In this document: positions 1 to 26,271 of the stretch, in pieces
Position numbering within the stretch: position 1 is the first letter of the stretch
How the letters are laid out: the number at the start of each line of letters is the position of its first letter
Notes under the pieces: generated by a model
What the model saw: only the letters and a program-made list of their open reading frames with translations
Told to the model about the DNA's origin: nothing
Database searches by the model: none
DNA from: a virus
Length of the DNA: 27,140 nucleotides
IMG/VR virus record: IMGVR_UViG_3300028735_000030
Coordinates: 1-27,140 of that record
Strand: one strand, 5' to 3'
Translations under genes and position numbers: made by a program

Positions 1-127
1 ATTTTATTGTAAATCAGTGAATTACATTTTTATTAAGATTTTTTAACATTATTTTTCTTGACACGTATTGAATTGCACTATATCTTTGTAGTATAAATTT
101 TAAAGAAAGGAAAAATGGAAAATTTAA
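1..127 (+). repeat. Direct repeat, promoter module copy A
   Basis: Bases 1-127 are identical to 858-984, base for base. The repeat carries a near-palindrome (9-27), the whole promoter, the leader and the first 13 bases of the downstream gene, so both genes begin with the residues MENL. It may extend left of the window. The two genes that follow are otherwise unrelated, so the repeat looks like a shared promoter-start module joined to different coding sequences. Confidence 0.95.
43..88 (+). promoter_or_regulatory. Three-part promoter P1
   Basis: TTAACA (43-48), nine bases, TTG (58-60), twenty bases, then TATCTTTG (81-88), which matches the Bacteroidota -7 consensus TAnnTTTG. A near-palindrome TGTAAATCAGTGAATTACA (9-27) lies just upstream and could be an operator. 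It should drive 115-474 and 479-793 with a leader of about 25 nt; the leader has a purine-rich stretch before the ATG. Confidence 0.8.
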
Positions 128-474
128 ATGAAATTTTAGAAGAACTTCAAGAAAATATCAAGCTCTATGAATGGGAAACATGGGAAGACATTCAGGAGAT
201 ATTGGTTGGAGCGTATAAAGATTATTATATTATCTATAATAATATGTTTGAGATAACTTGTCTTGCAGATATAATTATGTATAGGCATTATCTTGCATCA
301 AAAAAAAATAAGAAATTTCTATTAATTAAAAAAAGAACATTTAAAAAATTAGAAAGATATATAAAAGTTTTGAACAAACAAAAAAAAGCAGAAGAATGTA
401 TTTATATTTTCAAAACTTTAAATAAGCTATATCCTGGTTTTGATTTTTATTATTTAAAAAAATATAATATTTGA
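115..474 (+). CDS. Uncharacterised accessory protein, 119 aa
   Basis: I do not recognise this protein. It is lysine-, tyrosine- and isoleucine-rich, with an acidic helical N-terminus followed by a basic region around residues 60-90, and it has no evident signal peptide, metal-binding motif or catalytic motif. The start is fixed by promoter P1 about 27 nt upstream and by its match to the start of 972-1640, which shares the first four residues. It ends four bases before the TPHDV-family gene at 479, so the two are probably co-transcribed. Its position in a separately promoted cassette at the edge of the virion and recombination genes suggests an accessory (moron-like or early host-takeover) role, but this is inference from context only. 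Confidence 0.7.
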   Translation: MENLNEILEELQENIKLYEWETWEDIQEILVGAYKDYYIIYNNMFEITCLADIIMYRHYLASKKNKKFLLIKKRTFKKLERYIKVLNKQKKAEECIYIFKTLNKLYPGFDFYYLKKYNI

Positions 475-478
475 TTTT

Positions 479-793
479 ATGGTAACCCCCCACGATGTTA
501 ATATCGTTGATAAAGATGGGAATGTTATCTTGATTGTGCCTGCCTCCGATAAGCCTTTGCGGCTTATCGAAAAGCGGGATGTTATTGGAGACATCAATGG
601 GATACCATTGTCCAGTGTGTCTTATACAATAGACGAAGCAACGCCGTTACCCAATCCAGACACTGATACGTTTTACATTGTCAGCCGTGTAGTGGCTGAG
701 ACGTTTAAACGACGTGACTTTATCGTACCCGACCAAACGGTGCGTAATGATAAAGGGCAGATAGTAGGGTGCAAGGGATTTGCGTTTGTGTAA
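479..793 (+). CDS. TPHDV-family small conserved protein
   Basis: A 104-aa protein resembling a widespread small family of unknown function seen in bacteria and phages. Hallmarks are TPHDV (residues 3-7), the DKDGNV turn (11-16), a PAS/PPS-like segment (21-23), PLPNPDTDTFYIVSRVV (about 56-72), and a C-terminal RNDKGQIVGCKG (89-100). The base composition is clearly richer in G and C than the flanking AT-rich genes, which suggests transfer. The start is ATG at 479, but the second copy at 26996 has six extra residues before TPHDV (MEITFVNL versus MV), so this copy may be shortened at the 5' end. It follows 115-474 by four bases and is closed by a terminator. I know of no established function for the family. 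Confidence 0.85.
   Translation: MVTPHDVNIVDKDGNVILIVPASDKPLRLIEKRDVIGDINGIPLSSVSYTIDEATPLPNPDTDTFYIVSRVVAETFKRRDFIVPDQTVRNDKGQIVGCKGFAFV
485..605 (+). repeat. TPHDV gene repeat, copy 1
   Basis: Bases 485-605 are identical to 27020-27140, the last 121 bases of the window, so the repeat probably continues past the window end. Upstream sequence differs except for a shared GATTTTATGG just before the junction. Inside is a perfect 9-bp hairpin: CGATAAGCC (547-555), loop TTTGC, GGCTTATCG (561-569). Confidence 0.95.
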
Positions 794-814
794 TCCGTCA
801 TTGTGGTTTGCTTG

Positions 815-839
815 ACCGTGCTTAATGCACGGTTTTTTT
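815..839 (+). terminator. Rho-independent terminator
   Basis: Stem ACCGTGC (815-821), loop TTAAT, GCACGGT (827-833), then a T run to 839. It closes the 115-793 cassette. Confidence 0.9.
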
Positions 840-857
840 ATTTAGAAAAATAAATTT

Positions 858-984
858 ATTTTATTGTAAATCAGTGAATTACATTTTTATTAAGATTTTT
901 TAACATTATTTTTCTTGACACGTATTGAATTGCACTATATCTTTGTAGTATAAATTTTAAAGAAAGGAAAAATGGAAAATTTAA
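858..984 (+). repeat. Direct repeat, promoter module copy B
   Basis: Identical to bases 1-127, including the near-palindrome (866-884), the promoter and the first 13 bases of the gene at 972. The perfect identity over non-coding DNA points to recent duplication or ongoing recombination. Confidence 0.95.
900..945 (+). promoter_or_regulatory. Three-part promoter P2
   Basis: An exact copy of P1: TTAACA (900-905), N9, TTG (915-917), N20, TATCTTTG (938-945). It drives 972-1640. Confidence 0.8.
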
Positions 985-1640
985 GTCAATTAAAAGAGTT
1001 TTTCAAAGGTCAAGTAAGAGACAGTTACGACAACTATTCTGTTGGGGTATGGAGACCCGAAGAGTACATGGGCTTTACCGAATATTATTCTAAAAGAGCC
1101 TTTGATGCTCTTGAAGACCCTGCGAAACGTTCAGAGGGGGATTTGATTAGTATTATAAGTCGAATTACAGGGGATGATAAAGAATTGGTTTTAAAAGTAC
1201 TCAGAAAAATTATTCATGAAGATTTACTTGAATACCATCATATTGGTAAAAAACGTGGTAAAAACAGAAAAAAGGAGTATTTTTATAACGCAACTCAAAT
1301 CGTAATGGTTTGCGAGGAATATGAATCGGCAAAAGAAAAAGTTTTAAATGATAATATAATTAAAGAAAAAGCAAAATCAGAATTACAATTATTAGAAAAT
1401 GAATTAAAAGAATTAGCTAATAAAGGAAAATGGTTTGCACGCGTAAGCAGAGTACCCAATGGTTTTGTTTATATTGTTTACTATGAAATGAAAGGAAAGT
1501 TTGGTTGGTTTGATAGTAATCCTAAATACAATCTACCTGAATATTATAGTGGCTATATCTTTGAAAACGAACATGACTTGAATGATTATAAGGAAATTAA
1601 ACGCAAAATAGAAGACTTAAAAGAGTTGATATATCAATAA
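972..1640 (+). CDS. Putative winged-helix/coiled-coil protein, 222 aa
   Basis: Not assigned to a named family. Residues about 55-110 read like a winged-helix DNA-binding unit: GDLISIISRITGDDKELV is a plausible helix pair, followed by a helix with LRKIIHEDLLEYHHI, a basic turn KKRGKNRKK and a short strand YFYNATQIVMV. Residues about 115-150 form a charged coiled coil, and the C-terminus (150-222) is tyrosine-rich and may be a separate domain. The start is fixed by promoter P2 and by the 5' identity with 115-474. The gene stands alone between its own promoter and a terminator. A regulator, or a phage protein acting on host DNA, are both possible; the DNA-binding reading is from pattern only. 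Confidence 0.75.
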   Translation: MENLSQLKEFFKGQVRDSYDNYSVGVWRPEEYMGFTEYYSKRAFDALEDPAKRSEGDLISIISRITGDDKELVLKVLRKIIHEDLLEYHHIGKKRGKNRKKEYFYNATQIVMVCEEYESAKEKVLNDNIIKEKAKSELQLLENELKELANKGKWFARVSRVPNGFVYIVYYEMKGKFGWFDSNPKYNLPEYYSGYIFENEHDLNDYKEIKRKIEDLKELIYQ

Positions 1641-1656
1641 ATTTAGTTTTGATTTT

Positions 1657-1687
1657 AAAAAAGCCTACTATTATGGTAGGCTTTTTT
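1657..1687 (+). terminator. Bidirectional terminator
   Basis: A run (1657-1662), stem GCCTAC (1663-1668), loop TATTATG, GTAGGC (1676-1681), T run (1682-1687). With A and T runs on both sides it can stop the rightward gene at 972 and the converging leftward operon. Confidence 0.9.
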
Positions 1688-1695
1688 CATGTTTG

Positions 1696-1833
1696 TTAAT
1701 TTATTAACATTTTAAACCTGTCTAAATCCTCTTTTTGTTTAAATATATAACAAGCATTATCAATTACATAATTAAAGCCTTCAGGAATTTTATTTATAAA
1801 TCGTAATAAGAAATAAAATTCAAACCCAAATAA
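1696..1833 (-). pseudogene. Coding-like fragment after the DUF4406 gene
   Basis: This is a 45-codon open stretch without an ATG near its beginning, in the -1 frame relative to the DUF4406 gene and overlapping its last 40 bases. Its composition looks coding: after the stop of the upstream gene it reads INKIPEGFNYVIDNACYIF and then a charged helix with KQKEDLDRFKML. It could be the remnant of a gene whose start was lost, a C-terminal extension reached by a -1 frameshift, or chance. I see no canonical slippery heptamer. Confidence 0.35.
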
Positions 1834-2111
1834 TCAGCAAACATTATTTCAATATCCCTGCCTTTGCTTTGAGTATTTTCAGGGATAATAAATATATCCG
1901 TACATTCCTTTAATACATCTAAGCACTGAACCATTGCGTCTGCCCATATTTGTTTTTCAGTGCCGTTTTTGATAATAACAAAATCAGGGGGACTTTTGAC
2001 GATAGCTTTGGGATATCGGTTTTTCAATGACCGCTTCCATATTTCAAATTTTTTGATATAATCAGGGTCGTTAGTGATTGAACCGCTTAGGTATATTACT
2101 CTATTTTTCAT
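1794..2111 (-). CDS. DUF4406 protein (nucleoside deoxyribosyltransferase-like)
   Basis: The 105-aa protein fits the DUF4406 group, which has the fold of nucleoside 2-deoxyribosyltransferases. It opens with the strand-loop YLSGSIT (7-13), has W56 and M60 in the central helix, then LDVLKECTDIFIIP (64-77) and the SKGRDIEI..A motif (82-92), where E88 lies at the position usual for the family's catalytic glutamate. Members are common in phage genomes; a nucleotide-salvage or base-modification role is presumed but not proven. It is the last intact gene of the leftward operon, 11 bases after the VRR-NUC gene. A coding-like fragment follows in another frame. Confidence 0.8.
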   Translation of the reverse strand: MKNRVIYLSGSITNDPDYIKKFEIWKRSLKNRYPKAIVKSPPDFVIIKNGTEKQIWADAMVQCLDVLKECTDIFIIPENTQSKGRDIEIMFADYLGLNFISYYDL

Positions 2112-2122
2112 TATATATCTTT

Positions 2123-2482
2123 CTAATTTTTTAAATGTTCTTTTTTGATGTAAGTATTTACCTTGTAAATAAACTCATTAATAGTGTAACACACTGATAC
2201 ACAATACCCTGCGTTTTCAAGTTGCTTCATGATTTCCATTTGATGCTTAGTGGGCTTGTTATTGCCTACCTTTAATTCAATAAACATACCTGCATACTTG
2301 CCGTTTGGGTAGGCTATGAATAAATCAGGAATACCCCTAACTACCCCTTCACGTTTCATAATAGAAGCAGTTACTATATCCCTCTTGCCGCCGTTAGGGA
2401 TTGCAAAAATTAAAATATTAGGGTATTTTAGTTTGAAATACTTCAAGCAAGCACGTTGTAATTCTGATTCTTTATGTTTCAT
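2123..2482 (-). CDS. VRR-NUC domain nuclease
   Basis: A 119-aa single-domain protein of the VRR-NUC family, a branch of the PD-(D/E)XK nucleases. E7 lies in the first helix, then FAIPNGGKRD (26-35), the GIPDLFI signature with D53, and the MFIELKVG strand with E69 and K71. Q81 after the active-site strand and the closing GYCVSVCYT strand (92-100) also fit. Phage members act as structure-specific nucleases, and some cut Holliday junctions. Placement in the same operon as RecT suggests processing of recombination or replication intermediates before packaging. Its ATG overlaps the stop of a 33-aa ORF. Confidence 0.88.
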   Translation of the reverse strand: MKHKESELQRACLKYFKLKYPNILIFAIPNGGKRDIVTASIMKREGVVRGIPDLFIAYPNGKYAGMFIELKVGNNKPTKHQMEIMKQLENAGYCVSVCYTINEFIYKVNTYIKKEHLKN

Positions 2483-2580
2483 ATATCTAATTGTTTTATA
2501 CCTAGTTTCAATATGTTATTATTAGGGAACTGCTTAGATAGTCTATTGCTAATTAAACGTATTTTTTCTAAATATTTCAT
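2479..2580 (-). CDS. Small ORF, 33 aa
   Basis: A basic 33-residue ORF that begins MKYLEKIRLISNRLSKQF. Its TGA overlaps the ATG of the VRR-NUC gene in the ATGA arrangement, and it fills an otherwise empty gap between that gene and the lysin candidate. Translational coupling is plausible. It could be a functional microprotein or merely an upstream ORF aiding translation of the nuclease. No domain is recognisable. Confidence 0.45.
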   Translation of the reverse strand: MKYLEKIRLISNRLSKQFPNNNILKLGIKQLDI

Positions 2581-2631
2581 ATTTCAAAAAAATTAAAATC
2601 AGGGAATAGTTTGTTTATTCATAAAAATTAT

Positions 2632-3198
2632 TTAAACACTAATTAAATAAATATCATACAACTTGCCTAATTCTAACATGCTTTCAAGTGTGGTATATTG
2701 CTCCTTTGGAACAACAATACATCCAGCACTCCATTGATGAACTAACTGTGTGTATAACCCGCCGATATGTAAGTTAATACCAAAGTAACCCTGCTGAGTA
2801 TGTGTGTAGTCAATGGTATCGTTACGATTACCGTCCCTACCAACTATCACAGGTCTAACTTGTAATAACTCAATAGACTTGAAACCAAATCTATTGGTTT
2901 GAATGGCTTGCCAAGTCTTAGGATAGTAGCCCTCCTTCAATACAGCAACGCCTGTAATGCCACCGTAGGTTATCGGATTATAAACATAAAACCCGCCTGC
3001 ACGGGTAGTGCAGGCAAAGATTTCCTTTCTGATACCGTTTTCCACAAAAAAACAGAAGTCAGAATATTTATCATCGAACTTTTCGGTGGTTCTTATCAAA
3101 AAAAAGCCGTTCAGGTATTTAGGGTAGTTTAAACTTTCGGAGGCTTTGGTTTTGATAAACTCTAAATATCTATTGTAAGTTAATTGATTATTAAACAT
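2632..3198 (-). CDS. YkuD-like L,D-transpeptidase-fold enzyme, lysin candidate
   Basis: A 188-aa protein with the active-site layout of the YkuD (L,D-transpeptidase) fold: H144 in GINLHIGG, followed by S157 and the nucleophile C160 in HQWSAGCIVV (154-163). The aromatic, glycine-rich core (about 65-145) fits the beta-sheet body. There is no signal peptide or membrane segment, so export would need a holin or lysis from within. Cellular members form or trim peptide cross-links in peptidoglycan; in a phage the likely job is cutting or editing the host wall at lysis. It sits in the recombination operon rather than with the virion genes, seven bases before the next leftward gene. Fold identity is fairly sure; the role as endolysin is inference. 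Confidence 0.72.
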   Translation of the reverse strand: MFNNQLTYNRYLEFIKTKASESLNYPKYLNGFFLIRTTEKFDDKYSDFCFFVENGIRKEIFACTTRAGGFYVYNPITYGGITGVAVLKEGYYPKTWQAIQTNRFGFKSIELLQVRPVIVGRDGNRNDTIDYTHTQQGYFGINLHIGGLYTQLVHQWSAGCIVVPKEQYTTLESMLELGKLYDIYLISV

Positions 3199-3205
3199 AT
3201 TAAAT

Positions 3206-3604
3206 TTAATTAATTTCTATAATATATTTATTTTTGTTAGATGTTTTACCTAATAAATATGATAATATGGGGAATAATAATTTGTCTCTTAATAAACGAT
3301 CAATAACATTTATAACATTATAGCAATAATATATACATAAAGTATGTAAATTTCTGTTTTTTATATTTGAAATTTTTTTCATGAATTTATAAATTTCCGT
3401 TGCCAAATCCCTTAATATAATATAATGTTCATATTTATAAAAATTATATTCTCCTGCAATAGTATCTTCTATTAGCACACCTTGTTTAGTATTAAACTCT
3501 ATTGAATATCCTCTTTCTATATTTTGGTTTTTTATTATATTTATAACATCAATAAATAATTCTTCAATTTTGTTAATTGATTGGATTATTTCTTTTCTAT
3601 TCAT
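3206..3604 (-). CDS. Uncharacterised protein, 132 aa
   Basis: No family recognised. It is mostly helical by eye, rich in isoleucine, asparagine, lysine and tyrosine, and more AT-rich than its neighbours, which could mean late arrival in the operon. There is no clear membrane segment, although LLFPILSYLLG (109-119) is hydrophobic. It starts one base after the stop of the upstream gene and ends seven bases before the lysin candidate, so it is certainly co-transcribed with them. A lysis-related role from adjacency is possible but unsupported. Confidence 0.7.
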   Translation of the reverse strand: MNRKEIIQSINKIEELFIDVINIIKNQNIERGYSIEFNTKQGVLIEDTIAGEYNFYKYEHYIILRDLATEIYKFMKKISNIKNRNLHTLCIYYCYNVINVIDRLLRDKLLFPILSYLLGKTSNKNKYIIEIN

Positions 3605-3605
3605 A

Positions 3606-4016
3606 TTATTTTATTTTAGTTATAATTAAATTGTAATCTTGTTTTTTTATGTTTGCCTTTGGGATTTCTTCACATGAGATAGGATCAATACCTCCACCAC
3701 GTTTAGCAATATCTTTAAGTCCATCAAGGTAAGTAGTGAATTTTTCAATTTGAGCTTCGGTTTGTTTAATCGGTTCAATGTGGCTGTAATCGTATGTAGT
3801 ACGTGGTCTAATACTGAACCGATAGTTGTGAGTGTCGTATGTCTTATTGTTATCTTCCAAGAATTCAATCACTTTTGGTTTGATTTCCTTCATACATTCT
3901 TCAAGGAGTGTTTCAATCTCCTTTAATCTAATCATTGTGTCGGTTACACTGCTAATTCCATCACGGTAATTATCCATGATTTCATTAATTGCTTTGATTG
4001 CCATTAGTTTTTTCAT
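3606..4016 (-). CDS. RecT-associated phage protein, 136 aa
   Basis: This helical protein has a central segment NYRFSIRPRTTYDYSH (about 64-79) of a type often seen in small uncharacterised proteins encoded beside phage RecT or Bet genes: a predicted helix, a strand pair with a TYxYS-like stretch, then a second helix. The N-terminal helix (about 1-55) is long and charged. Its start overlaps the 3' end of the RecT gene by 32 bases in a different frame. A later start at the fifth codon (MAIKAINEI) is also possible. An accessory role in annealing or in protecting DNA ends is inferred from gene order only. Confidence 0.75.
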   Translation of the reverse strand: MKKLMAIKAINEIMDNYRDGISSVTDTMIRLKEIETLLEECMKEIKPKVIEFLEDNNKTYDTHNYRFSIRPRTTYDYSHIEPIKQTEAQIEKFTTYLDGLKDIAKRGGGIDPISCEEIPKANIKKQDYNLIITKIK

Positions 4017-4965
4017 TATTATTATTGTTGTTGTTGTTATTGTTATTGTTGTTAATTCCTTTTAATTTATTGTATTCATTCAACAAAATATCGTGGTCAT
4101 TGTATGCTTCTAAATCGTTGATAAACACGATTTTTTTTGCTTCATTCTTAATACATTTGACAATGCTATTATACAAGTCTTTGTTTGACTTGAATAATGC
4201 ATTCAAGAATGGTCTTGCGTTTGGTTTGTCAAATATAGCTAAGTAGCAAGACTTAATAACATCAGGGTGTTTGATAAATGGATATACATCTCCCGTTTCG
4301 TTATCTACCCATAGATTGTCATTATTGAACTCATCATTGGGTCTTGTAATAATGGATTGATTATTATTATGGTTGTTGCCATTACCATTACCATTGTTAT
4401 TGCCGTTGGACTCATCGTTATAATACAACATCTCCTCCCTTGTATAGGGTAGGGAATTCATGTGATTAGGAAAGCACAAACGCATTGCTTGACTTACTGC
4501 GGTTTTCATGAGCATGTGCCTTTCCATGCCTTTCTTAAACCGTGAGTAAACAGTACCGTCTTTCTTTGCAATTACACCGCAGTCAGAGAGATAGACTGTG
4601 TGTTTGAATGGTCTGCTCCAATCTTTGCGATAAATCGTTACTACACAGCGGTAGTCTTCTCCGTTTCCCATAAACTCGTAATCCCAACCGTCGAGCTTAT
4701 CACTCTGCTCCGCCCACTGTAGGTAAACGTGGTAAGATATGACTGTTTTAAGTTGCTGCTTGCCGTAGTTATCGGTTGTAATAAATGCGTAAACCTCATT
4801 CATAAATGGGTTCAGTTTTAATTCCTTGCAGTAAGTCAGGAACATTTCAATGTCGGTCTGATTGAAGTTCCCGTTTAACGCCCCGCTTTTTTGCAGATAC
4901 TCTCTTGCCTTAACTAAAAAGGCATCATTGCTGATTGCTTCGATTTCCTTCATGTTTATTAACAT
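3985..4965 (-). CDS. bet: RecT/Bet-family single-strand annealing protein
   Basis: A 326-aa protein whose N-terminal 180 residues match the Bet/RecT annealing family. Diagnostic stretches are CKELKLNPFMNEVYAF (46-61), VISYHVYLQWAEQSD (75-89) and the GMERHMLMKTAVSQAMRLCFP core helix (from 146), shared across phage annealases. It would coat single-stranded DNA and anneal it during replication-linked recombination. The C-terminal third is unusual: an Asn/Gly-rich linker (186-203), a small acidic-basic domain (210-300) and a pure run of 13 asparagines (305-317). The start at 4965 overlaps the upstream 87-aa gene by 41 bases; the methionine at codon 5 is an alternative. No exonuclease partner is evident next door; the VRR-NUC protein is the nearest nuclease. 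Confidence 0.9.
   Translation of the reverse strand: MLINMKEIEAISNDAFLVKAREYLQKSGALNGNFNQTDIEMFLTYCKELKLNPFMNEVYAFITTDNYGKQQLKTVISYHVYLQWAEQSDKLDGWDYEFMGNGEDYRCVVTIYRKDWSRPFKHTVYLSDCGVIAKKDGTVYSRFKKGMERHMLMKTAVSQAMRLCFPNHMNSLPYTREEMLYYNDESNGNNNGNGNGNNHNNNQSIITRPNDEFNNDNLWVDNETGDVYPFIKHPDVIKSCYLAIFDKPNARPFLNALFKSNKDLYNSIVKCIKNEAKKIVFINDLEAYNDHDILLNEYNKLKGINNNNNNNNNNNNNEKTNGNQSN
4015..4053 (-). repeat. Asparagine-codon triplet repeat
   Basis: Thirteen consecutive AAT/AAC codons near the 3' end of the RecT gene. The tract is a trinucleotide microsatellite prone to length change; because the unit is three bases, changes keep the frame. The next gene starts just inside its downstream edge. Confidence 0.95.
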
Positions 4966-5188
4966 TAATGGTTATATATTTAAATTTTATCATATTTTTG
5001 AAAAAATTCAAGGACACAAATGCCCATATATCATTGCCGTAGACTATGGTTTTTTTTCCAAGTCTATCAAGAATGAATGTTGTAGCACTTATGTCCTCGC
5101 CTTTAGTTATCATCTCGCTTAGCACGTTATCCACGTATTTAGCTATATGCAAATGCCTTCTTTGATGAATAATTATTTCTTTTTGCAT
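4925..5188 (-). CDS. Uncharacterised protein, 87 aa, first gene of recombination operon
   Basis: No family recognised. The N-terminal 50 residues (RRHLHIAKYVDNVLSEMI and following) read like an ordinary soluble helical protein. The C-terminus is lysine- and asparagine-rich and is partly encoded in the 41-base overlap with RecT, so the true protein may have been extended by loss of an earlier stop. The start at 5188 is supported by a well-formed promoter whose -7 element ends 12 bases upstream, leaving a leader of only about ten bases. As the promoter-proximal gene it may have a regulatory or early function, but nothing in the sequence shows this. Confidence 0.65.
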   Translation of the reverse strand: MQKEIIIHQRRHLHIAKYVDNVLSEMITKGEDISATTFILDRLGKKTIVYGNDIWAFVSLNFFKNMIKFKYITINVNKHEGNRSNQQ

Positions 5189-5200
5189 AATTTTTGATTA

Positions 5201-5246
5201 CAAAGATAAAAGGTTTTTTTTGATTTGTCAAAATAATATTTGTTAA
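5201..5246 (-). promoter_or_regulatory. Three-part promoter P6 (leftward)
   Basis: On the minus strand: TTAACA (5246-5241), N9, TTG (5231-5229), N20, TATCTTTG (5208-5201). It starts the 5188-1794 operon immediately downstream of the primase gene, so recombination and lysis genes can be expressed apart from the replication genes. Confidence 0.8.
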
Positions 5247-5257
5247 AATATATTAAA

Positions 5258-7942: not shown

Positions 7943-7959
7943 GAATAATAATATTTTTG

Positions 7960-7993
7960 CAAATATAATAGCAATTTTTTAGCAATAAAACAA
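7960..7993 (-). promoter_or_regulatory. Leftward promoter P8 of the replication operon
   Basis: On the minus strand: TTG (7993-7991), 23-base spacer, TATATTTG (7967-7960), matching TAnnTTTG. It lacks the upstream TTAACA box of the three-part promoters and its spacer is at the long end of the usual range, so activation by a phage factor is possible. Confidence 0.6.
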
Positions 7994-8193
7994 GAATTTT
8001 AAAAATACGCAATTTTACTTATTTAATACGTAAGTAAATATACTTATAACAAAATTTTGAAATATTTTCAATAAAAGTGTCATTTCTTTGAAAATACCTA
8101 TAAAAACGGGGGTAAAAAACAGGCTTAAAAAATAGGTTTGTTTTTATTAATCCTATAAAAAATAGCGATACTTTTTAGAAAATTTAGTTTTTA

Positions 8194-8209
8194 TTAACCA
8201 TTTGGTTAA
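8194..8209. promoter_or_regulatory. Palindrome, possible operator
   Basis: TTAACCATTTGGTTAA has perfect 7-base arms around TT, in the leader-side DNA upstream of the replication operon. It is a plausible site for a dimeric regulator. Confidence 0.4.
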
Positions 8210-8275
8210 ATGCAAAAAGTGTGCCAAGAATTTAAAAATAAATTAAAAAATGTTAAGGTAAATTGTGTAATTAGG

Positions 8276-8294
8276 TGTAAATCAATAATTTACA
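8276..8294. promoter_or_regulatory. Palindrome of the GTAAATC family
   Basis: TGTAAATCAATAATTTACA has 7-base arms. Related sequence occurs upstream of P1 and P2 (TGTAAATCAGTGAATTACA) and in the iteron blocks (TGTAAATCAAA), so one regulator may bind all of them. Confidence 0.45.
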
Positions 8295-8323
8295 AAAATT
8301 GTTGTTAATGATTGGTTTTATTG

Positions 8324-8490
8324 CTGTTTAAATTGCTGTAAATCAAAGAATTAAGCACTCAGGCGGACTAACATTTTAAACATAGTCCGCAAAATAAAAA
8401 CGAGTTTCCTGCAATTGCTTAAAAATCAAATAAATACGCAAGTAAAACATGCGGACTGTTTTTTTTCTGTTTAAATTGCTGTAAATCAAA
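8324..8490 (+). repeat. 24-bp direct repeat with GTAAATCAAA core
   Basis: Bases 8324-8347 are identical to 8467-8490, each beginning CTGTTTAAATTGCTG and ending GTAAATCAAA. A shorter relative is at 8550-8566. The second copy is closed by TTAAACAG (8494-8501), which is the inverse of its own CTGTTTAA start, so the block can also fold on itself. Each copy lies shortly before a GCGGACTA element. Confidence 0.85.
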
Positions 8491-8907
8491 TAGTTAAACA
8501 GTTTTGCGGACTAAGATGCGGACTAAGATTTTTTGAAATTTTTGGCTCTAATTGTTTGTAAATCAAAGATTTAAACAGTTTTGCGGACTATGCGGACTAA
8601 GATTTTCGTAAACTTTCTTTTTTTTCTCTTTTTTCTGTTTTTTTACTGATTATTATTTTTTTAACGTTTTTGCTTTTTTATTATTATTCAACTAATTATT
8701 ATTTTTTTTTCACTATTAATTTTTTCCCCTAAGATATAAAAATATTAGTCCGCATAGTCCGCATTAACATTTAAAACCTTGAAAATCAAACAGTTACACG
8801 GATTTTTTTAACAATTCGATTAGTCCGCATCTTAGTCCGCAAAACTGTTTAACTATTTGATTTACAAAGATTTAAAAACAATTCGATTAGTCCGCATCTT
8901 AGTCCGC
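8363..8907. repeat. Mirror-symmetric array of 13 GCGGACTA elements
   Basis: Forward copies start at 8363, 8451 (last base differs), 8506, 8518, 8583 and 8592; reverse copies (TAGTCCGC) start at 8383, 8746, 8755, 8821, 8833, 8888 and 8900. Most come in close pairs whose start-to-start spacings mirror each other: 12 and 9 on the left, 9, 12 and 12 on the right. The space between the arms (about 8608-8745) is almost pure T/A with pyrimidines on the plus strand. The outermost right pair abuts promoter P7, so binding there could also repress the virion operon. Confidence 0.9.
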
Positions 8908-8911
8908 AAAA
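8810..8911. repeat. 35-bp direct repeat within the iteron array
   Basis: Bases 8810-8844 recur exactly at 8877-8911 (period 67). Each unit contains AATTCGAT followed by two TAGTCCGC elements 12 bases apart. The unit also occurs inverted, less exactly, at about 8499-8526. Confidence 0.9.
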
Positions 8912-8935
8912 AAGAAACCTATAAACTTACTGAAT

Positions 8936-8966
8936 TTTGTTTTTTGATTTATGTTTATTACATTTG
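8936..8966 (+). promoter_or_regulatory. Rightward promoter P7 of the virion operon
   Basis: TTTG (8936-8939), 19 bases, TACATTTG (8959-8966) is an excellent match to the Bacteroidota consensus. The ATG at 8971 follows the -7 element by only four bases, so the transcript probably begins at or next to the start codon. The last iteron pair ends 29 bases upstream. Confidence 0.75.
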
Positions 8967-8970
8967 CGGC

Positions 8971-9378: not shown

Positions 9379-9379
9379 T

Positions 9380-10718: not shown

Positions 10719-10722
10719 TAAT

Positions 10723-12758: not shown

Positions 12759-12769
12759 AATTTAAAAAT

Positions 12770-19996: not shown

Positions 19997-20000
19997 TATT

Positions 20001-20264
20001 ATGATATACTTACAGATAATCAACGAGTTAGACCTAAATAAAATGCCATTATATGCATTGTTAATAATGGCTATTTATTATCTTTGGAAATCCTATCAAA
20101 ATAGTATTGAACGTGCTATAAACCGAGAAAAAGAGGTTTATGACCGTTTGGAGACCAAGATTGACCAACTGAACCTATGTTTAAATAAGTTTGGAACAAA
20201 AATCAATGAACTTGAAATTAAAATTATTGAACTTGAGAACATTGTAAAGAATGGAAGTAAATAA
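20001..20264 (+). CDS. Membrane-anchored coiled-coil protein, holin-like candidate
   Basis: An 87-aa protein with one likely membrane helix (MPLYALLIMAIYYLWKSY, residues 15-32) and a long charged coiled coil (about 33-85). Single-helix plus coiled-coil proteins of this size include BhlA/XhlA-type holins and other lysis accessories. It starts four bases after the 997-aa gene and overlaps the tape measure start by 14 bases. Holin is my first guess because no other holin is evident, but a tail-assembly partner of the tape measure is an alternative. Confidence 0.65.
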   Translation: MIYLQIINELDLNKMPLYALLIMAIYYLWKSYQNSIERAINREKEVYDRLETKIDQLNLCLNKFGTKINELEIKIIELENIVKNGSK

Positions 20265-23200
20265 AATTAAGTTTGAGGACTTATTCGATGGCGACCCATT
20301 TGAGAAGGCAAGAGAGAGTCTTATTAAGCTAATTGAAACTCTCGAAGAACTCAAAAAAAAAAATATAGAAATTGCCAAAATCAAACTTATTGAGCTTGAT
20401 AAAGAGACAAAATCTAATGAGGAACTAATAAAACGTATTGAGGAAATATTAAACCTATCAAAACAACTTGCTGAAAATCAAAAAATTATAAATGAAACGC
20501 AAAAAAAGGCACAAAAAGAACTTAATGAGCTTGATAAGAAGAAAAAAGAGCTTTCTTTTGATGATTTGGTTTTAAAAGAAAAAGAAAAATTAGTACAATC
20601 AGAACTAATTAAGAAGGCAAAGGAACGTGCAAAGGAGGAATTAGGTATATCAAAAGCCACAGAAAAGCAAATAGGAGCTTATAAACAACTCGATAATCAG
20701 CTAAAAATATTACGTAATCAATTCAAAGATTTAGCAGCGGAGGCTGTGCAGTTAGAACTATCAGGAGACAATCCTGAAAGACTTGCTGAAATTAAGAAGC
20801 AACTTGCTGAAATTCAGCCAAAAATTACTGAGTTGGATACTGCATTGAAGCAGATAGATGCCAATGTAGGGCAGTTTCAAAGGCAAGTCGGTAGTTATAA
20901 AGTAGCTATTGTTGAAGCATTCAAGGAAGTGAAGGGACAGATTTCTGAAAATATCAAGGGACTTACGGGATTAGATGAACGGGCGGATATTGTGGTAGAT
21001 GCGGCGGGGCAGATGAAGGAGGCGTTTAATAAGTTCGGCGATTCGTTAAAAAATAATCAAAGTAAACTAAAAAGTTTTTTAGATTTTTTGAAAAATATAG
21101 GGAAAGCAGGGGTATTGGGACTATTGTTAGTGGCACTATCAAGCATTCAAGCGGTTGCACAGGGACTTGGCGGGACGTTTAATACCCTGAAAGACACAGG
21201 TGCGGGAGCTTTGGGGGCTGTAAACGCAATAGCAAGCCAATTGGCGTTATTGTTTACGGGCAAGTTCAAAGATGCCTTAAACGTATCAGCCACTGAGGCG
21301 TTTAAGTTAAGTAAGGAGATAAGCAAGTTACAACGGGAGTTTGAAAGACTGCAAATAGCAGTAAATAACACTATTGGCAACTTGGAGAGTTCTATTCAAT
21401 CACAACAAGCTATCGCAAGCAATGCTTTTAAAACCGATAAGGAGCGGTTTGAAGCACAGGAGGAGGCACTGAAATTACAAATCTCACTGATTGAGATTAG
21501 AACAGCTAAGTTGTTGAATGAATTAGAGATAGCGCAAAAGCAATTGGACTTACAAGTTAAGTCTACGGGACTATCACAAGAGCAAGTTGATTTGGTTGAG
21601 AAATTCAGAACGGGGCAATTATCTATCTTAGATGCCAACAATAAGGTAAGGGAGGAATTCAATCAGTTACCGAATGCTGTTCAAGATGCTTTATTGAAGA
21701 TAGACGAGATAACAGGCAACTTAATAGTTGAACAAGATGAGCTATTTAGAGCAAGACTTGAATCGCAGACGTTTTATTTAGAAAAATTATTCAAAGAACT
21801 AAATATCAACTTGAAAAAAACTATCAAAAAAACAGTATCCGATATTGATTTATTACTTAACCAATTATCTGACAATATAACATTCAAGGACGCAATTGAT
21901 GCTAATCAGAAGGCTTTTGAAAGATTAATTAATACTTTTGATAGCGTTTTACAACCAATTTTCAAAAATTTTGGTAAAAACATTGATGGTTTGAATGCAA
22001 GGTTTTTATTGACATTTAAAACCGCAGAGGATTTGCGTAAAGAGCTATCCGAGAGAGGATTTGGGGAGGAGGTGGTTAATGAATTGATAGATGCATGGGA
22101 GGACGTTGCTGATAAATCTAATAAATATCTAAATAATATTGAAGCAATAAAAAAAGCAGAACAAGAAGCCATTCAAGATGGATTAAAGAGGCAAACTTTG
22201 GCAAAAGAAGCATTACAATTGCAAGAATTGCAGTTTGATTTGGAGCAAGCGCGGATTAAACAAGGCTTGCCTGCTATTTTGGAACAGGAAAAATTGTTGA
22301 TACAAATCAGAAATGCACAAATTGAAAAGATTAAAAAGGATTTTCAAGAACAATTAAAGAATAAAAAATTAACCAATGAACAAATTGTTGCACTTGAATT
22401 GGAAACTCAACAAAAAATAAATGAAATCACACAAAACTATGAACTTGAAAGGCAAAGATTAGAACAAGAAAGGCTTCAAAGAATTAAACAGATTAATAAA
22501 GAGATTGAAGCAATATCAGATGAACTAACTATTGCAAATATAGAAGATACTATTCAAAAAAATAAAAACTTTATTTTAGTTTCATTAAATCAAACAAAAA
22601 AATTATTGCTTGAAATTCAAGATATTAGGCTAAAACAATTAATGATTGCAAGAGATGAACAATTACTTGCTGCAAAATCAGAAGAAGAACGTATTGCAAT
22701 ATTAAAAAAATTTAACTTAGAAATTGAAAAATTGCAAAGGGACACGAATAAAAAACTCAAAGAGGTTAATAGGCAAGCACTTAACGAGCTTATCGATATT
22801 GGGACTAAATCTATCAATGAAGCTCAGAATTTAGTTAATCAAAACTTCCAAAAAAATATTCAAAACATTGATAGGCAACTAAATACATTGAATAATGCAA
22901 TTGAGAAGGAAAGACAATTGGCAAATCAGGGAGTTCAGACTAATTTAGATGCTATTGAAAAACAAGTTGCACAATTAGAGGCAAAGAAAAGAGCTGAGGA
23001 AAAAAGAAACCAAAATGCACAATTAGCACTTGCATTTGTGAATAGTGTAGCAAGCTATGCTAAGATTGAACCTAAGACTGCGGTTCAGAATGCGTTTAAG
23101 GATATTATATTAGCTAAGGCACTTGCGGCAGTTATTGCGGGGGCGTTTAAGGAGGGGGTTGAGAATTTTCAAGGGAAAGGAACAGAAACAAGCGATAGTA

Positions 23201-23424
23201 ATTTAGTTTTGATTTCAAGGGGTGAAAGTGTGGTTACTGCAAAGGGTACTAAGCAGTATAAGGGATTAGCTACTGCTATGAATGAAGGTAAAGTAGAACA
23301 GTGGATAAGTAATAATTATGCAGGTGGGACTAATATCAATGTAGATGAACTCGGTAATTTAATTGAAACCAAAATAGTCAATCAATCAAAGCGGGTTATT
23401 AAGCATTTGAATAAGAAAAGATAA
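20251..23424 (+). CDS. Tape measure protein, 1057 aa
   Basis: Long coiled-coil segments (about 1-200, 345-400 and 600-925) flank a central hydrophobic region with KAGVLGLLLVALSSIQAVAQ (about 285-304). GQFQRQVGSYKVAI (about 206-219) resembles a stretch common in tape measures of Bacteroidota phages. The end is also typical: a hydrophobic ALAAVIAGAFKEGVENF block (about 955-971), then a segment with VLISRGESVVTAKGTKQYKG. By the usual rule of about 1.5 angstrom per residue, the tail would be near 150-160 nm, indicating a siphovirus. The coding strand is A- and G-rich, unlike the C-rich genes upstream. A bidirectional terminator follows directly. Confidence 0.9.
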   Translation: MEVNKIKFEDLFDGDPFEKARESLIKLIETLEELKKKNIEIAKIKLIELDKETKSNEELIKRIEEILNLSKQLAENQKIINETQKKAQKELNELDKKKKELSFDDLVLKEKEKLVQSELIKKAKERAKEELGISKATEKQIGAYKQLDNQLKILRNQFKDLAAEAVQLELSGDNPERLAEIKKQLAEIQPKITELDTALKQIDANVGQFQRQVGSYKVAIVEAFKEVKGQISENIKGLTGLDERADIVVDAAGQMKEAFNKFGDSLKNNQSKLKSFLDFLKNIGKAGVLGLLLVALSSIQAVAQGLGGTFNTLKDTGAGALGAVNAIASQLALLFTGKFKDALNVSATEAFKLSKEISKLQREFERLQIAVNNTIGNLESSIQSQQAIASNAFKTDKERFEAQEEALKLQISLIEIRTAKLLNELEIAQKQLDLQVKSTGLSQEQVDLVEKFRTGQLSILDANNKVREEFNQLPNAVQDALLKIDEITGNLIVEQDELFRARLESQTFYLEKLFKELNINLKKTIKKTVSDIDLLLNQLSDNITFKDAIDANQKAFERLINTFDSVLQPIFKNFGKNIDGLNARFLLTFKTAEDLRKELSERGFGEEVVNELIDAWEDVADKSNKYLNNIEAIKKAEQEAIQDGLKRQTLAKEALQLQELQFDLEQARIKQGLPAILEQEKLLIQIRNAQIEKIKKDFQEQLKNKKLTNEQIVALELETQQKINEITQNYELERQRLEQERLQRIKQINKEIEAISDELTIANIEDTIQKNKNFILVSLNQTKKLLLEIQDIRLKQLMIARDEQLLAAKSEEERIAILKKFNLEIEKLQRDTNKKLKEVNRQALNELIDIGTKSINEAQNLVNQNFQKNIQNIDRQLNTLNNAIEKERQLANQGVQTNLDAIEKQVAQLEAKKRAEEKRNQNAQLALAFVNSVASYAKIEPKTAVQNAFKDIILAKALAAVIAGAFKEGVENFQGKGTETSDSNLVLISRGESVVTAKGTKQYKGLATAMNEGKVEQWISNNYAGGTNINVDELGNLIETKIVNQSKRVIKHLNKKR

Positions 23425-23425
23425 A

Positions 23426-23446
23426 AGCCACTGTTAAGTGGCTTTC
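23426..23446. terminator. Bidirectional terminator after the tape measure
   Basis: Stem AGCCACT (23426-23432), loop GTTA, AGTGGCT (23437-23443), with short T runs on both strands. It separates the rightward virion operon from the leftward gene at 23450-23968. Confidence 0.8.
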
Positions 23447-23449
23447 TGA

Positions 23450-23968
23450 TTAGTAGGCTTTAGTAATGAACTTTTTAAACTTCTTAAATGCAATTTGCTT
23501 TTTATCGCATTTATCAAAGTAGGTTAGCAGCATATCGATATGATGCCACTTAACTGCCTTATTAATACAAATGAACTTCTCAACATAGTCTCCTCTGAAA
23601 TATACATAAACGGGTATATTAAACATTCCAAAACCCATGCGTTGCAATTGGTTGGCAAGTCTAAACGGAACGGCAAACACAATGGGGGTAGTAGTGTAGA
23701 GCAAGTCAAGTAAGTAATTATATCGGTCTCTTCTATCTGCAATGCAGATATGGCTTACAAAAAACACATCACAAATAACATTACCACAGAAACCAATATC
23801 TGTGCGAGGATACTGTCTCCATACATAACAATTACCGTTAGTGATATGTGTGTATAAATCGCAGGGCTCAATCCCTGCAATGTCCGCACAAATCAAATAA
23901 TTATCGTATAATGCCATTGCATCATCATGGGTTACATCAATGCTGTTAACTATTCTTGAATTGTTCAT
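23450..23968 (-). CDS. Uncharacterised leftward moron-like protein, 172 aa
   Basis: No family recognised. It has many aromatic residues and cysteines (C27, C36, C47, C61, C66, C75), a hydrophobic core GNVICDVFFVSHICIA (about 62-77), and PIVFAVPFRLANQLQRMGFG (from 94), vaguely reminiscent of the late part of an acetyltransferase fold but without a convincing acetyl-CoA motif. The basic C-terminus ends KKFKKFITKAY. It is the only leftward gene among the virion genes, with its own three-part promoter and a terminator directly after its stop. That independence fits a moron, such as a superinfection-exclusion or defence-related gene. ATG 23968 lies 20 bases after the -7 element. Confidence 0.75.
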   Translation of the reverse strand: MNNSRIVNSIDVTHDDAMALYDNYLICADIAGIEPCDLYTHITNGNCYVWRQYPRTDIGFCGNVICDVFFVSHICIADRRDRYNYLLDLLYTTTPIVFAVPFRLANQLQRMGFGMFNIPVYVYFRGDYVEKFICINKAVKWHHIDMLLTYFDKCDKKQIAFKKFKKFITKAY

Positions 23969-23988
23969 TTTTCTTTGAAATTATACTA

Positions 23989-24034
23989 CAAAGATATATC
24001 GGTTTAAAATGTTTGTCAAGTTAAAATATGTTAA
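23989..24034 (-). promoter_or_regulatory. Three-part promoter P5 (leftward)
   Basis: On the minus strand: TTAACA (24034-24029), N9, TTG (24019-24017), N20, TATCTTTG (23996-23989), followed by the same TAGTATAA-like downstream bases as P1. It drives the single gene at 23968-23450. Confidence 0.8.
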
Positions 24035-24056
24035 TAATAAAAATTTATTGTTACTA

Positions 24057-24087
24057 TTGCATTTCTTGTTTGATTTTTGTAATATTG
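24057..24087 (+). promoter_or_regulatory. Weak rightward promoter before 24100
   Basis: TTG (24057-24059), exactly 20 bases, TAATATTG (24080-24087), one base away from TAnnTTTG. It lacks a TTAACA box. It would restart transcription of the terminase gene group after the upstream terminator. Confidence 0.45.
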
Positions 24088-24099
24088 CAAAAAATTCTT

Positions 24100-24642
24100 A
24101 TGGATTATAAGTTTAACGGTTTCAGGTGCTTTGCGGGCAAGTTAATGTTGCCTATTGTTAATCCCAAGATGCACGTTACGGGCATTGTAACGGCTGTAAA
24201 TGCTATTACTATTCAATCATTTAATAATATAACGCAATCCCAATTTAATAATAGGATTGCAACCATAGTAGGCTCAGCAATACACAGACCTATTGCCGAA
24301 TTCTTTGAACCAATTGTTATTTATGGCGGCGGAGTATTTTGGAAAAAAAACAATATAAGTAGTTATAATATTGCTATACAGATAATGGGGTTTTCATTAG
24401 CAATAAATTTACCCATAGGAACAATTGTTGACTTTCAAATTTATGATATTTGGGCGCCTACCAATGAGGATAAACCTATTAACAGGATATCTGTTATTAA
24501 TACTATTGCATCATTCCCATATATAGACGAATCTAATAGTGGAATTGTTATTAATATGCCTGCTACATTTAGGGGGGTTATTGAAATAGGCAATTTTATT
24601 CAAGCAAGCATTACATCAAACGCAGTAATTTTATTAAACTAA
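24100..24642 (+). CDS. Beta-rich structural protein candidate, 180 aa
   Basis: No family recognised. It is a hydrophobic, strand-rich protein (KLMLPIVNPKMHVTGIVTA, about residues 14-32, and IVIYGGGVFWKKNN later) of low charge, resembling small phage virion proteins. ATG 24100 is preferred because the weak promoter lies just before it; a start at 24028 would add a 24-residue hydrophobic leader encoded within the divergent promoter DNA. It heads the short group that ends with the large terminase. A minor tail or fibre-like protein is possible. Confidence 0.65.
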   Translation: MDYKFNGFRCFAGKLMLPIVNPKMHVTGIVTAVNAITIQSFNNITQSQFNNRIATIVGSAIHRPIAEFFEPIVIYGGGVFWKKNNISSYNIAIQIMGFSLAINLPIGTIVDFQIYDIWAPTNEDKPINRISVINTIASFPYIDESNSGIVINMPATFRGVIEIGNFIQASITSNAVILLN

Positions 24643-24646
24643 AAAT

Positions 24647-24844
24647 ATGAAGTTAGTTTTTTTTGATAGCAAAATCGTTGGTTATTATACTGATAGGTAT
24701 TACTTCCATGAATGCAGTGATTTCTTTGAGCAAGCAATTCAGGATGGTGTAATAATAGAGAATCACAAAAAAAGGGCAATTATGTTATACATTGCTGATG
24801 ATGCTTTTGATGAGTTGGAAGAAGTAACCAATGAGACTAAGTAA
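24647..24844 (+). CDS. Uncharacterised small protein, 65 aa
   Basis: A short acidic protein (pattern FFDSKIVGYYTDRYYFHE at residues 5-22, then a helix, ending DDAFDELEEVTNETK). It starts four bases after the previous gene and overlaps the terminase start by 14 bases, so it is co-translated with the terminase. Small-terminase genes often occupy this place, but 65 residues is short for one and I see no DNA-binding helix-turn-helix. Confidence 0.68.
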   Translation: MKLVFFDSKIVGYYTDRYYFHECSDFFEQAIQDGVIIENHKKRAIMLYIADDAFDELEEVTNETK

Positions 24845-26000
24845 TAAGTTCAAACCATACGTGGAAAGGATGTTGAGTAAACGGGGTGTTAGGTATGTGT
24901 TAATGAGTGGGGGGAGGGGGAGCGGTAAAACTTATGTTTCATTTCAGTTGCTTGCCAAGCGGGTGAGGTTGGTGTCGGGGGAGGTGGGGGTAGTGGCGAG
25001 ATATACCTACACAGGGGCAAGGAAGATGATAAACGATATTGCAGACACTATTCCTGACGGGGTAGTAACCAAAAGTCAAATTATCTATGGGAATAATAGG
25101 TATTATATCGATGGGATTAAGACGTCATCTCCGTCTAAGTTAAAGAGTATCAATAGGATGAGTTTTTTGATGATAGATGAGGCGCAAGATATTAAGAGTT
25201 ATCAGGAGTTTAGTATTCCTGACAAGTCAATCAGGGGAGGTATTGATAAGCTAACGGTACTAATATTCAATCCTACGCACAGCAGGCATTGGATATACAG
25301 TAGCTTTGGTAATAACATTGAGTATGAACAAGTTGAGTACAATAACAATACTTACAATGTACCTATTATCAAGGATAATGATGTGATCCATATCCATACT
25401 ACGTTTTTAGACTTGCCAAAAAATACCTTAGGATATTACGATATGGTTACACAGGCTGAGGTTGCTTATAGGTTTAATCAGGAACTTTTTGCAAACGAAT
25501 TTATTGGAGTTCCTTTAGACTACTCAGGCAATATTATACTAAGGTTTAAGCGGTGCAGGGAGGAGGATATAGATTATTCATTGCCTACCTTATATGGGTT
25601 AGATATAGGATTTCATGATGCTACGGCGCTAGTGAAGGTGTGGGTTGATAGAGGTGGGGGGAGAGTGTTTGCAAAAGTGTTATTATACATTACGCATGCC
25701 ACTGCTAATCAACTATTTGAAATTATAAAAAATTACCAAGATGCTCCGATTATTTCAGACGTGAGTAATAAGCAACTCACGGAGGAATTAAGATTAGCGG
25801 GGTGTAGGATATTTTACAAGAATCAAAGGGTTAGTTTAGTGGAACAATTACGTAAGTTATCCGATTACATCATATACACTCCTGATAATCAATTGTTGAA
25901 TGAATTAGTGGGTTATTGTTATGGTGAGAAGGGCATTGTTAATAATAATGGCGACCATGCCATTGATGCCGTTAGGTATGCTTCTTTTGATTTAATTTAG
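24831..26000 (+). CDS. terL: Terminase large subunit
   Basis: A 389-aa packaging motor of the Terminase_3 (PBSX-like) type. The ATPase has Walker A GGRGSGKT (27-34), Walker B LMIDEA (113-118) and the coupling motif LIFNPT (144-149). The nuclease domain has three acidic sites in order: GLDIGFHD (D258), IISDVSN (D310) and DHAIDAVRY (D375/D379). It binds the portal, cuts concatemeric DNA and pumps it into the prohead. The gene lies about 14 kb downstream of the portal instead of before it, closing the virion region, followed by a strong terminator. Coding strand is strikingly G-rich, unlike the C-rich head genes. Confidence 0.95.
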   Translation: MRLSNKFKPYVERMLSKRGVRYVLMSGGRGSGKTYVSFQLLAKRVRLVSGEVGVVARYTYTGARKMINDIADTIPDGVVTKSQIIYGNNRYYIDGIKTSSPSKLKSINRMSFLMIDEAQDIKSYQEFSIPDKSIRGGIDKLTVLIFNPTHSRHWIYSSFGNNIEYEQVEYNNNTYNVPIIKDNDVIHIHTTFLDLPKNTLGYYDMVTQAEVAYRFNQELFANEFIGVPLDYSGNIILRFKRCREEDIDYSLPTLYGLDIGFHDATALVKVWVDRGGGRVFAKVLLYITHATANQLFEIIKNYQDAPIISDVSNKQLTEELRLAGCRIFYKNQRVSLVEQLRKLSDYIIYTPDNQLLNELVGYCYGEKGIVNNNGDHAIDAVRYASFDLI

Positions 26001-26020
26001 CTTCATTTTTCTTTCAGTAG

Positions 26021-26049
26021 AACCACAGATGTATTTCTGTGGTTTTTTT
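26021..26049 (+). terminator. Terminator T1 after terL
   Basis: Perfect 9-bp stem AACCACAGA (26021-26029), loop TGTATT, TCTGTGGTT (26036-26044), then T run to 26049. Confidence 0.95.
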
Positions 26050-26092
26050 ATTTTGTTGATTATTAGTTAGTTAGATTTGTTTTTAATATTTT

Positions 26093-26138
26093 TTAACATT
26101 ATTTTTCTTGACATGTATTGAAAAGTGGTTTATTTTTG
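26093..26138 (+). promoter_or_regulatory. Three-part promoter P3, orphan
   Basis: TTAACA (26093-26098), N9, TTG (26108-26110), N20, TATTTTTG (26131-26138). No ORF starts between it and terminator T2 about 34 bases further on. Confidence 0.75.
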
Positions 26139-26143
26139 CATAC

Positions 26144-26199
26144 CATTTTAAAAAGTTTTTATTTTCATTATAACCACAGATGTATTTCTGTGGTTTTTT
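26144..26199 (+). ncRNA. Putative short transcript between P3 and T2
   Basis: Promoter P3 should start transcription near 26142-26145, and terminator T2 would stop it near 26199, giving an RNA of roughly 55 nt that is mostly the terminator hairpin. No ATG lies ahead of the hairpin. It may be a small RNA or simply the scar of a deleted gene; ends are estimates. Confidence 0.35.
26172..26199 (+). terminator. Terminator T2, copy of T1
   Basis: The same 24-base hairpin as T1 (26172-26195) with a T run to 26199. Exact reuse within 151 bases suggests that the intervening segment, which includes a promoter, arose by duplication. Confidence 0.95.
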
Positions 26200-26225
26200 A
26201 TTTGTTTTTATTATTTTAATATTTT

Positions 26226-26271
26226 TTAACATATTTTTTCTTGACACGTATAAAAAAACAATATATCTTTG
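26226..26271 (+). promoter_or_regulatory. Three-part promoter P4
   Basis: TTAACA (26226-26231), N9, TTG (26241-26243), N20, TATCTTTG (26264-26271), followed by the same TAGTATAAATTTTAA leader start as P1. It drives 26298-26669 and the partial gene after it. Confidence 0.8.

What the first reader, a model, noticed from the sequence alone, without database searches (positions are those of the whole stretch)
43..26271. Six promoters share a rigid three-part architecture
TTAACA-N9-TTG-N20-TAnnTTTG occurs before genes at 115, 972, 26298, the leftward genes at 5188 and 23968, and in the orphan unit at 26093. Both spacers are exactly 9 and 20 in all six. The standard Bacteroidota promoter has only the last two elements and a looser spacer. 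The TTAACA box one turn upstream of the -33 looks like an activator or UP-like contact. The two promoters beside the iteron region lack it, suggesting two regulatory classes.
Basis: partly seen in the sequence, partly recalled or inferred. Interest (0 to 1): 0.75.

Follow-up and report, generated by a model that had tools for sequence, protein, structure and literature searches.

The report
Six phage promoters with a TTAACA box
This uncultured Bacteroidota phage carries six copies of an ordinary host-type promoter, several made by duplication, and all keep an extra six-letter box (TTAACA) at one fixed place upstream, which is probably an upstream contact for the transcription machinery but has not been tested.

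Summary
TTAACA-N9-TTG-N20-TAnnTTTG occurs exactly six times, at the stated places, against none in 200 simulated windows. These six are all the TTG-N20-TAnnTTTG sites in the window, and each has the fuller core TTGACA-N17-TATYTTTG.

They are not six independent cases. The sites at 43 and 900 are one recent duplication (127 nt identical). Those at 26093 and 26226 are a tandem terminator-promoter duplication. The site at 23989 resembles 26226 from TTAACA to the start codon. Still, among the three most diverged copies TTAACA is 6/6 while the 9-nt spacer is only 3-5/9 and the upstream flank is near background, so the box appears retained by selection (20 of 20,000 shuffles reach a six-column run).

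The architecture is not a general Bacteroidota one. A gap of 9 is at chance level in 494 Bacteroidota genomes, and no other of 19 viral records searched, including all 14 that hold the pattern, has it exactly more than once. Most likely these are host sigma-ABfr-type promoters of phage accessory and recombination genes, with an upstream RNA polymerase contact at about -50 to -45. A phage- or lineage-specific DNA-binding protein is the main rival. The 'two regulatory classes' claim is not established.

The parts
43..88 (+). Promoter 1: TTAACA 43-48, TTGACA 58-63, TATCTTTG 81-88; start site predicted near 93
   Evidence: Exact match; 26 nt before the ATG at 115
900..945 (+). Promoter 2: TTAACA 900-905, TTGACA 915-920, TATCTTTG 938-945; identical copy of promoter 1
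   Evidence: 1-127 = 858-984 exactly; 26 nt before the ATG at 972
26093..26138 (+). Promoter 3 (orphan): TTAACA 26093-26098, TTGACA 26108-26113, TATTTTTG 26131-26138
   Evidence: no ORF before the terminator at 26172-26195
26226..26271 (+). Promoter 4: TTAACA 26226-26231, TTGACA 26241-26246, TATCTTTG 26264-26271
   Evidence: 26 nt before the ATG at 26298
5201..5246 (-). Promoter 5, inside the leftward replication/recombination gene run: TTAACA 5246-5241, TTGACA 5231-5226, TATCTTTG 5208-5201
   Evidence: 12 nt before the ATG at 5188; most diverged copy
23989..24034 (-). Promoter 6: TTAACA 24034-24029, TTGACA 24019-24014, TATCTTTG 23996-23989
   Evidence: 20 nt before the ATG at 23968
115..474 (+). 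119-aa accessory gene of unknown function, driven by promoter 1
   Evidence: no Pfam match
485..793 (+). Tail fragment (104-aa ORF from 479) of a phrog_30542-type protein; its 5' part is also at 27020-27140
972..1640 (+). 222-aa gene driven by promoter 2; middle part looks winged-helix-like by eye, not confirmed
   Evidence: no family match; structure model of low confidence
4925..5188 (-). 87-aa gene heading the RecT gene (3985-4965, -), driven by promoter 5
   Evidence: RecT PF03837, E 5e-22
23450..23968 (-). 172-aa gene of unknown function driven by promoter 6
26298..26669 (+). 123-aa gene of unknown function driven by promoter 4
26019..26046 (+). Terminator after the terminase gene; same hairpin sequence as 26172-26195
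   Evidence: 85% repeat of 26157-26215
26172..26195 (+). Terminator closing the orphan unit of promoter 3
   Evidence: -13.1 kcal/mol, z -4.4
814..834 (+). Terminator between the 104-aa ORF and promoter 2
8937..8966 (+). Candidate promoter without TTAACA (TTG-N19-TACATTTG) before the rightward gene run

Best explanation
The six sites are strong host-type promoters of a Bacteroidota phage, read by the host RNA polymerase with its sigma-ABfr (core TTGACA-N17-TATYTTTG). They drive small accessory genes and the RecT operon. Several copies arose by duplicating promoter or terminator-promoter cassettes. In every copy TTAACA, at about -50 to -45, is kept because it is an upstream recognition site that raises initiation. 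Most likely it is where the carboxy-terminal domain of the polymerase alpha subunit docks, inside an otherwise all-A/T stretch, as a variant of the UP element. Shown by sequence: the six exact copies, their fixed spacing, their place before genes, the duplications, and the conservation of the box against diverged spacers. Inferred: promoter activity, the start sites, use of host polymerase, and the alpha-subunit contact.
For: Six exact copies, none in simulated sequence. Every TTG-N20-TAnnTTTG site in the window has the box. Between the most diverged copies the 20 element letters are identical while the 9-nt spacer is 3-5/9 and the 17-nt spacer 5-7/17. A six-column invariant run upstream of TTGACA is reached in 20 of 20,000 shuffles, and in 1 of 20,000 if it must contain G or C. 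Similarity of 23989 to 26226 stops just upstream of TTAACA (9/45 beyond it), as if the box were the upstream edge of the promoter. The stretch from -51 to -37 is all A/T apart from the C of TTAACA (and, in 23989 only, none further). Other phage promoters with this core have an UP-like A/T pattern at just this place. The box is short and not palindromic, which suits a monomeric contact. No sigma factor, RNA polymerase or confident transcription activator is among the scanned phage proteins.
Against: The letters differ from the A-tract UP-like pattern seen elsewhere, and an invariant C is odd for a minor-groove A-tract contact. TTAACA at gap 9 is not enriched in Bacteroidota chromosomes: 2 of 52 matches over 26 possible gaps. 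It is not enriched in viral contigs either (3 of 126 over 31 gaps in a truncated scan). So the polymerase does not generally use this box. The number of independent copies may be as low as two or three.
Confidence: 0.42

Rival explanations
1. TTAACA is the binding site of a sequence-specific DNA-binding protein (phage-encoded, or host-lineage-specific) that activates or represses this set of promoters as a regulon, for example an early set switched together.
For: Base-specific box with an invariant C and rigid spacing in all copies. Not a general feature of Bacteroidota promoters. Exact multiple copies were seen only in this record among the viral records searched. Candidate regulators exist: a 65-aa protein with a sub-threshold ribbon-helix-helix match (24647-24844, E 0.0024) and the 222-aa product of promoter 2.
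Against: The box is 6 nt with no inverted or repeated partner, unlike most dimer sites. Neither candidate regulator is confirmed. Single copies of the same arrangement occur in unrelated Bacteroidales chromosomes.
Confidence: 0.3
2. TTAACA has no function of its own. The six promoters descend from one ancestor by cassette duplication and the box has simply not yet changed.
For: Duplication is plain for 43/900 and 26093/26226, and likely for 23989. The box is A/T-rich apart from one C, in an A/T-rich region.
Against: Spacers and flanks have diverged to 20-50% identity between the most distant copies while TTAACA is 6/6. Chance of such a run is about 0.001 under shuffling.
Confidence: 0.2
3. The sites are not promoters but repeats with another role, for example recombination or packaging sites.
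For: Two copies flank duplicated segments, and one copy has no gene.
Against: The core matches the published sigma-ABfr consensus. Five of six sit 12-26 nt before an ATG in the right direction, and several follow terminators (PMC7366714).
Confidence: 0.04

Closest known systems
Sigma-ABfr (sigma-A) promoters of Bacteroides and Flavobacterium (-33 TTTG/TTG, -7 TAnnTTTG)
   Same: Both core elements; N20 spacer; position shortly before genes
   Different: Full TTGACA at -33 in all six, one fixed spacer, and an added TTAACA box that the published consensus lacks (PMC7366714, PMC9723704)
[quoted passage not shown]
   Same: Place relative to the -33/-35 element; very A/T-rich surroundings
   Different: No A-tract pattern; base-specific box with a C; not enriched in other Bacteroidota promoters
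Promoter families repeated within one phage genome, e.g. the 91-kb contig of L166/L169 with AGAAAAAGCTTGACACGTATYGATATTTTYCTTATCTTTG
   Same: Several near-consensus host-type promoters per phage with a phage-specific extension; the window's 43/900 share TTGACACGTATTG with it
   Different: The extension there is an A-tract, not TTAACA
Moron-like phage gene cassettes with their own promoter and terminator
   Same: Small unknown genes, own promoter, own terminator, duplicated units
   Different: Independent expression and acquisition not shown

Membership tests
Bacteroidota sigma-ABfr promoter | TAnnTTTG at -7 | tested here: met
   6/6
Bacteroidota sigma-ABfr promoter | TTG/TTTG at -33 at a suitable spacing | tested here: met
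   6/6 with TTG-N20 and in fact TTGACA-N17
Bacteroidota sigma-ABfr promoter | Transcription start just downstream of the -7 box | not testable with these tools
   No RNA data; placed 12-26 nt before an ATG in five of six
UP element | A-tract/T-tract pattern between about -59 and -38 | tested here: not met
   Other phage promoters with the same core show A at -20..-14 and -9..-4 and T at -12/-11 before TTGACA; the window's sites have T-rich sequence and TTAACA at -15..-10
UP element | Stimulation through the alpha carboxy-terminal domain | not testable with these tools
   Needs in vitro transcription
General three-part Bacteroidota promoter (TTAACA-N9) | TTAACA enriched at gap 9 before TTGAC-N18-TAnnTTTG in the phylum | tested here: not met
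   2 of 52 matches at gap 9 over 26 gaps outside the genome chosen for having it
Phage regulon with a dedicated activator | A phage-encoded DNA-binding regulator for the box | tested here: inconclusive
   Only sub-threshold or unconfirmed candidates
Moron-like cassette | Gene flanked by its own promoter and terminator | tested here: met
   Met in sequence for the 26298 unit, the 115-793 unit and 972; transcription itself not shown

The most novel reading that the evidence does not exclude
TTAACA at -50 to -45 is a base-specific upstream recognition element, read by a phage-encoded or host-lineage-specific factor, that defines a regulon of promoters within one Bacteroidota phage.
Probability: 0.28. 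Interest if true: 0.5.

Novelty: new variant of a known kind. Interest (0 to 1): 0.36.

Why it matters
Published consensus work on Bacteroidota promoters describes only the -33 and -7 boxes, and the literature searches made here found no upstream element described for them. A conserved third element, together with the UP-like pattern found in other phage promoters with the same core, would give a testable handle on how these polymerases read DNA upstream of -35, and useful parts for expression tools in this phylum.

Tried and rejected
Tested TTAACA as a general feature of Bacteroidota promoters and rejected it. Considered TTAACA as an alternative -35 box of an overlapping promoter: no conserved -10-like hexamer lies 17 nt downstream of it in the aligned sites. 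Looked for relatives of the phage through terminase, prohead protease and RecT in viral contigs, several proteins in named phages and two proteins in Bacteroidota genomes: only distant matches (24-41% identity), so orthologous promoters could not be compared. A search for the promoter plus its TAGTATAA leader found no other viral contig. A structure model of the 222-aa protein was of low confidence (mean pLDDT 57.5) and was not searched. No Rfam family matches the window, which gives no support for the orphan transcript being a known RNA. Three copies of TTAACA with gap 19 in one Bacteroidales chromosome (G453, L277) proved to be repeated chromosomal leaders beside ordinary cellular genes, not a phage.

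Full report
What is in the sequence. The reversed control pattern gives none, and 200 simulated windows from an order-2 Markov model give none. The core is stronger than stated: every site reads TTGACA-N17-TAT(C/T)TTTG. These six are also all the TTG-N20-TAnnTTTG sites in the window. Five lie 12-26 nt before an ATG in the right orientation. The sixth, 26093, is followed by a terminator (26172-26195) and no gene, so it would make an RNA of roughly 60 nt whose only predicted structure is the terminator hairpin.

Copies versus independent cases. The sites at 43 and 900 are one recent duplication: 1-127 equals 858-984 exactly. The sites at 26093 and 26226 belong to a tandem duplication of a terminator plus promoter. 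The site at 23989 resembles 26226 from TTAACA to the start codon, but only 9 of 45 letters agree further upstream. The site at 5201 is the most diverged. So 'six of six' overstates the independent evidence; the count of independent copies may be two to four.

Is TTAACA more than inheritance? Among 900, 23989 and 5201 the elements are identical (20 letters), while the 9-nt spacer agrees at 3-5 of 9, the 17-nt spacer at 5-7 of 17, and the upstream 45 nt at 13-18 of 45. Shuffling the 50 nt upstream of TTGACA in these three, keeping dinucleotides, gives an invariant run of six or more columns in 20 of 20,000 trials, and one containing G or C in 1 of 20,000. The trials assume independence, so the true support is weaker, but conservation of the box against changed neighbours points to selection.

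Is it a general Bacteroidota feature? No. In a scan allowing gaps of 0-30, gap 9 made up 3 of 126 cases in viral contigs (the scan was truncated). In 99 Bacteroidales and 395 Bacteroidota genomes, leaving out the genome chosen because it had the pattern, gap 9 made up 2 of 52 matches over 26 gaps. The exact 18-base form occurs in only 14 other IMG/VR stretches, once each. When 19 other viral records, including all 14 of those, were searched whole, none had the exact pattern twice; one 312-kb contig has three copies if one mismatch is allowed. A 20-base form is found in 15 contigs of about 85,000 genomes, 13 of them Bacteroidota by record title, mostly Bacteroidales, and usually before a gene. 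Chromosomes carrying it have one to three copies in 2-3.5 Mb, against six in 27 kb here.

What do other phage promoters have at this place? In 59 noncoding, de-duplicated CTTGACA-N17-TATCTTTG sites from other viral contigs, A is favoured at -20 to -14 and at -9 to -4 relative to the first T of TTGACA, and T at -12 and -11. Thirty-five sites inside long ORFs do not show the full pattern. A second set (TTGACA-N17-TAACTTTG, 39 sites) shows it more weakly. This resembles the UP element of Escherichia coli (consensus recalled from general knowledge, not looked up). TTAACA at gap 9 is absent from all of these sites. The window's promoters put TTAACA at -15 to -10, the same place, with T-rich rather than A-rich neighbours. 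They are therefore a distinct variant and fail the letter test for an ordinary UP element.

Genome setting. The window is a viral record with terminase, portal, prohead protease, RecT, a primase-like DUF6371 protein, a VapE-like helicase and a VRR-NUC nuclease. Its nearest named relatives by terminase are mostly phages of Riemerella, Cellulophaga and Nonlabens at about 30% identity. The DUF6371 protein has its best chromosomal matches in Bacteroidales (29-37%) and none in 395 genomes of the order of a Flavobacteriaceae MAG. A Bacteroidota host is likely; the species is unknown. The contig's last 121 nt equal 485-605, and reading on from 27140 into 606 restores one 216-aa ORF whose match to phrog_30542 rises from 86.6 to 95.1 bits. 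The ends therefore probably lie in a repeat of about 500 nt, and the map closes at about 27.4 kb (inference). Promoters 26093, 26226, 43 and 900 then stand in one accessory block of small unknown genes separated by terminators.

Mechanism. I take these as host-polymerase promoters that arose partly by cassette duplication, with TTAACA at about -50 to -45 kept as an upstream recognition site. An alpha-subunit contact is my first choice because of its place, its A/T surroundings and the short, non-palindromic form. A dedicated DNA-binding protein is a serious rival because the box is base-specific and not used elsewhere. Sequence alone cannot decide. The claim of two regulatory classes is weak: the promoters that lack the box (8937-8966 and near 7967) also lack the TTGACA-N17 core.

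Prior knowledge. The published consensus has only -33 and -7 elements with a variable AT-rich spacer (PMC7366714; PMC9723704). Searches for TTAACA or UP elements in Bacteroidota promoters in the held literature found nothing relevant, which is not proof of absence because most subscription journals are not held.

Noticed in passing
viral contigs L136-L250 and L285-L404 (sites): Bacteroidota-type phage promoters with a TTGACA-N17-TAnCTTTG core carry an UP-like A/T pattern (A at -20..-14 and -9..-4, T at -12/-11 before TTGACA), weaker or absent in matched coding sites. I found no published description in the held library.
   Followed up: partly
1-127, 485-605, 858-984, 27020-27140: The contig ends lie in a repeat; the record listed as linear is probably a circular map of about 27.4 kb with one ~500-nt repeat collapsed at the ends.
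   Followed up: partly
26000-26275: Tandem duplication of a terminator plus promoter leaves a promoter-to-terminator unit of about 60 nt with no gene.
   Followed up: partly
8261-8911: Dense direct and inverted repeats (GCGGACTAAGAT, GTAAATCAAA and their complements), including an 81-nt inverted pair, between the divergent gene runs; possible replication origin.
   Followed up: no
L277 (G453:C112) 5224, 6439, 15249 on the - strand: A Bacteroidales chromosome has three diverged promoters with TTAACA at gap 19 and one shared leader (TATCTTTGCAATGTGGTTTTTTCATAATAGTATTAGA), i.e. a repeated chromosomal promoter-leader.
   Followed up: partly
L166, L169 (one 91-kb contig): Several promoters share AGAAAAAGCTTGACACGTATYGATATTTTYCTTATCTTTG; the TTGACACGTATTG part also appears at window 58-70 and 915-927.
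   Followed up: no
4004-4056: The RecT gene end holds a (GTT/ATT)n repeat coding a run of asparagines.
   Followed up: no
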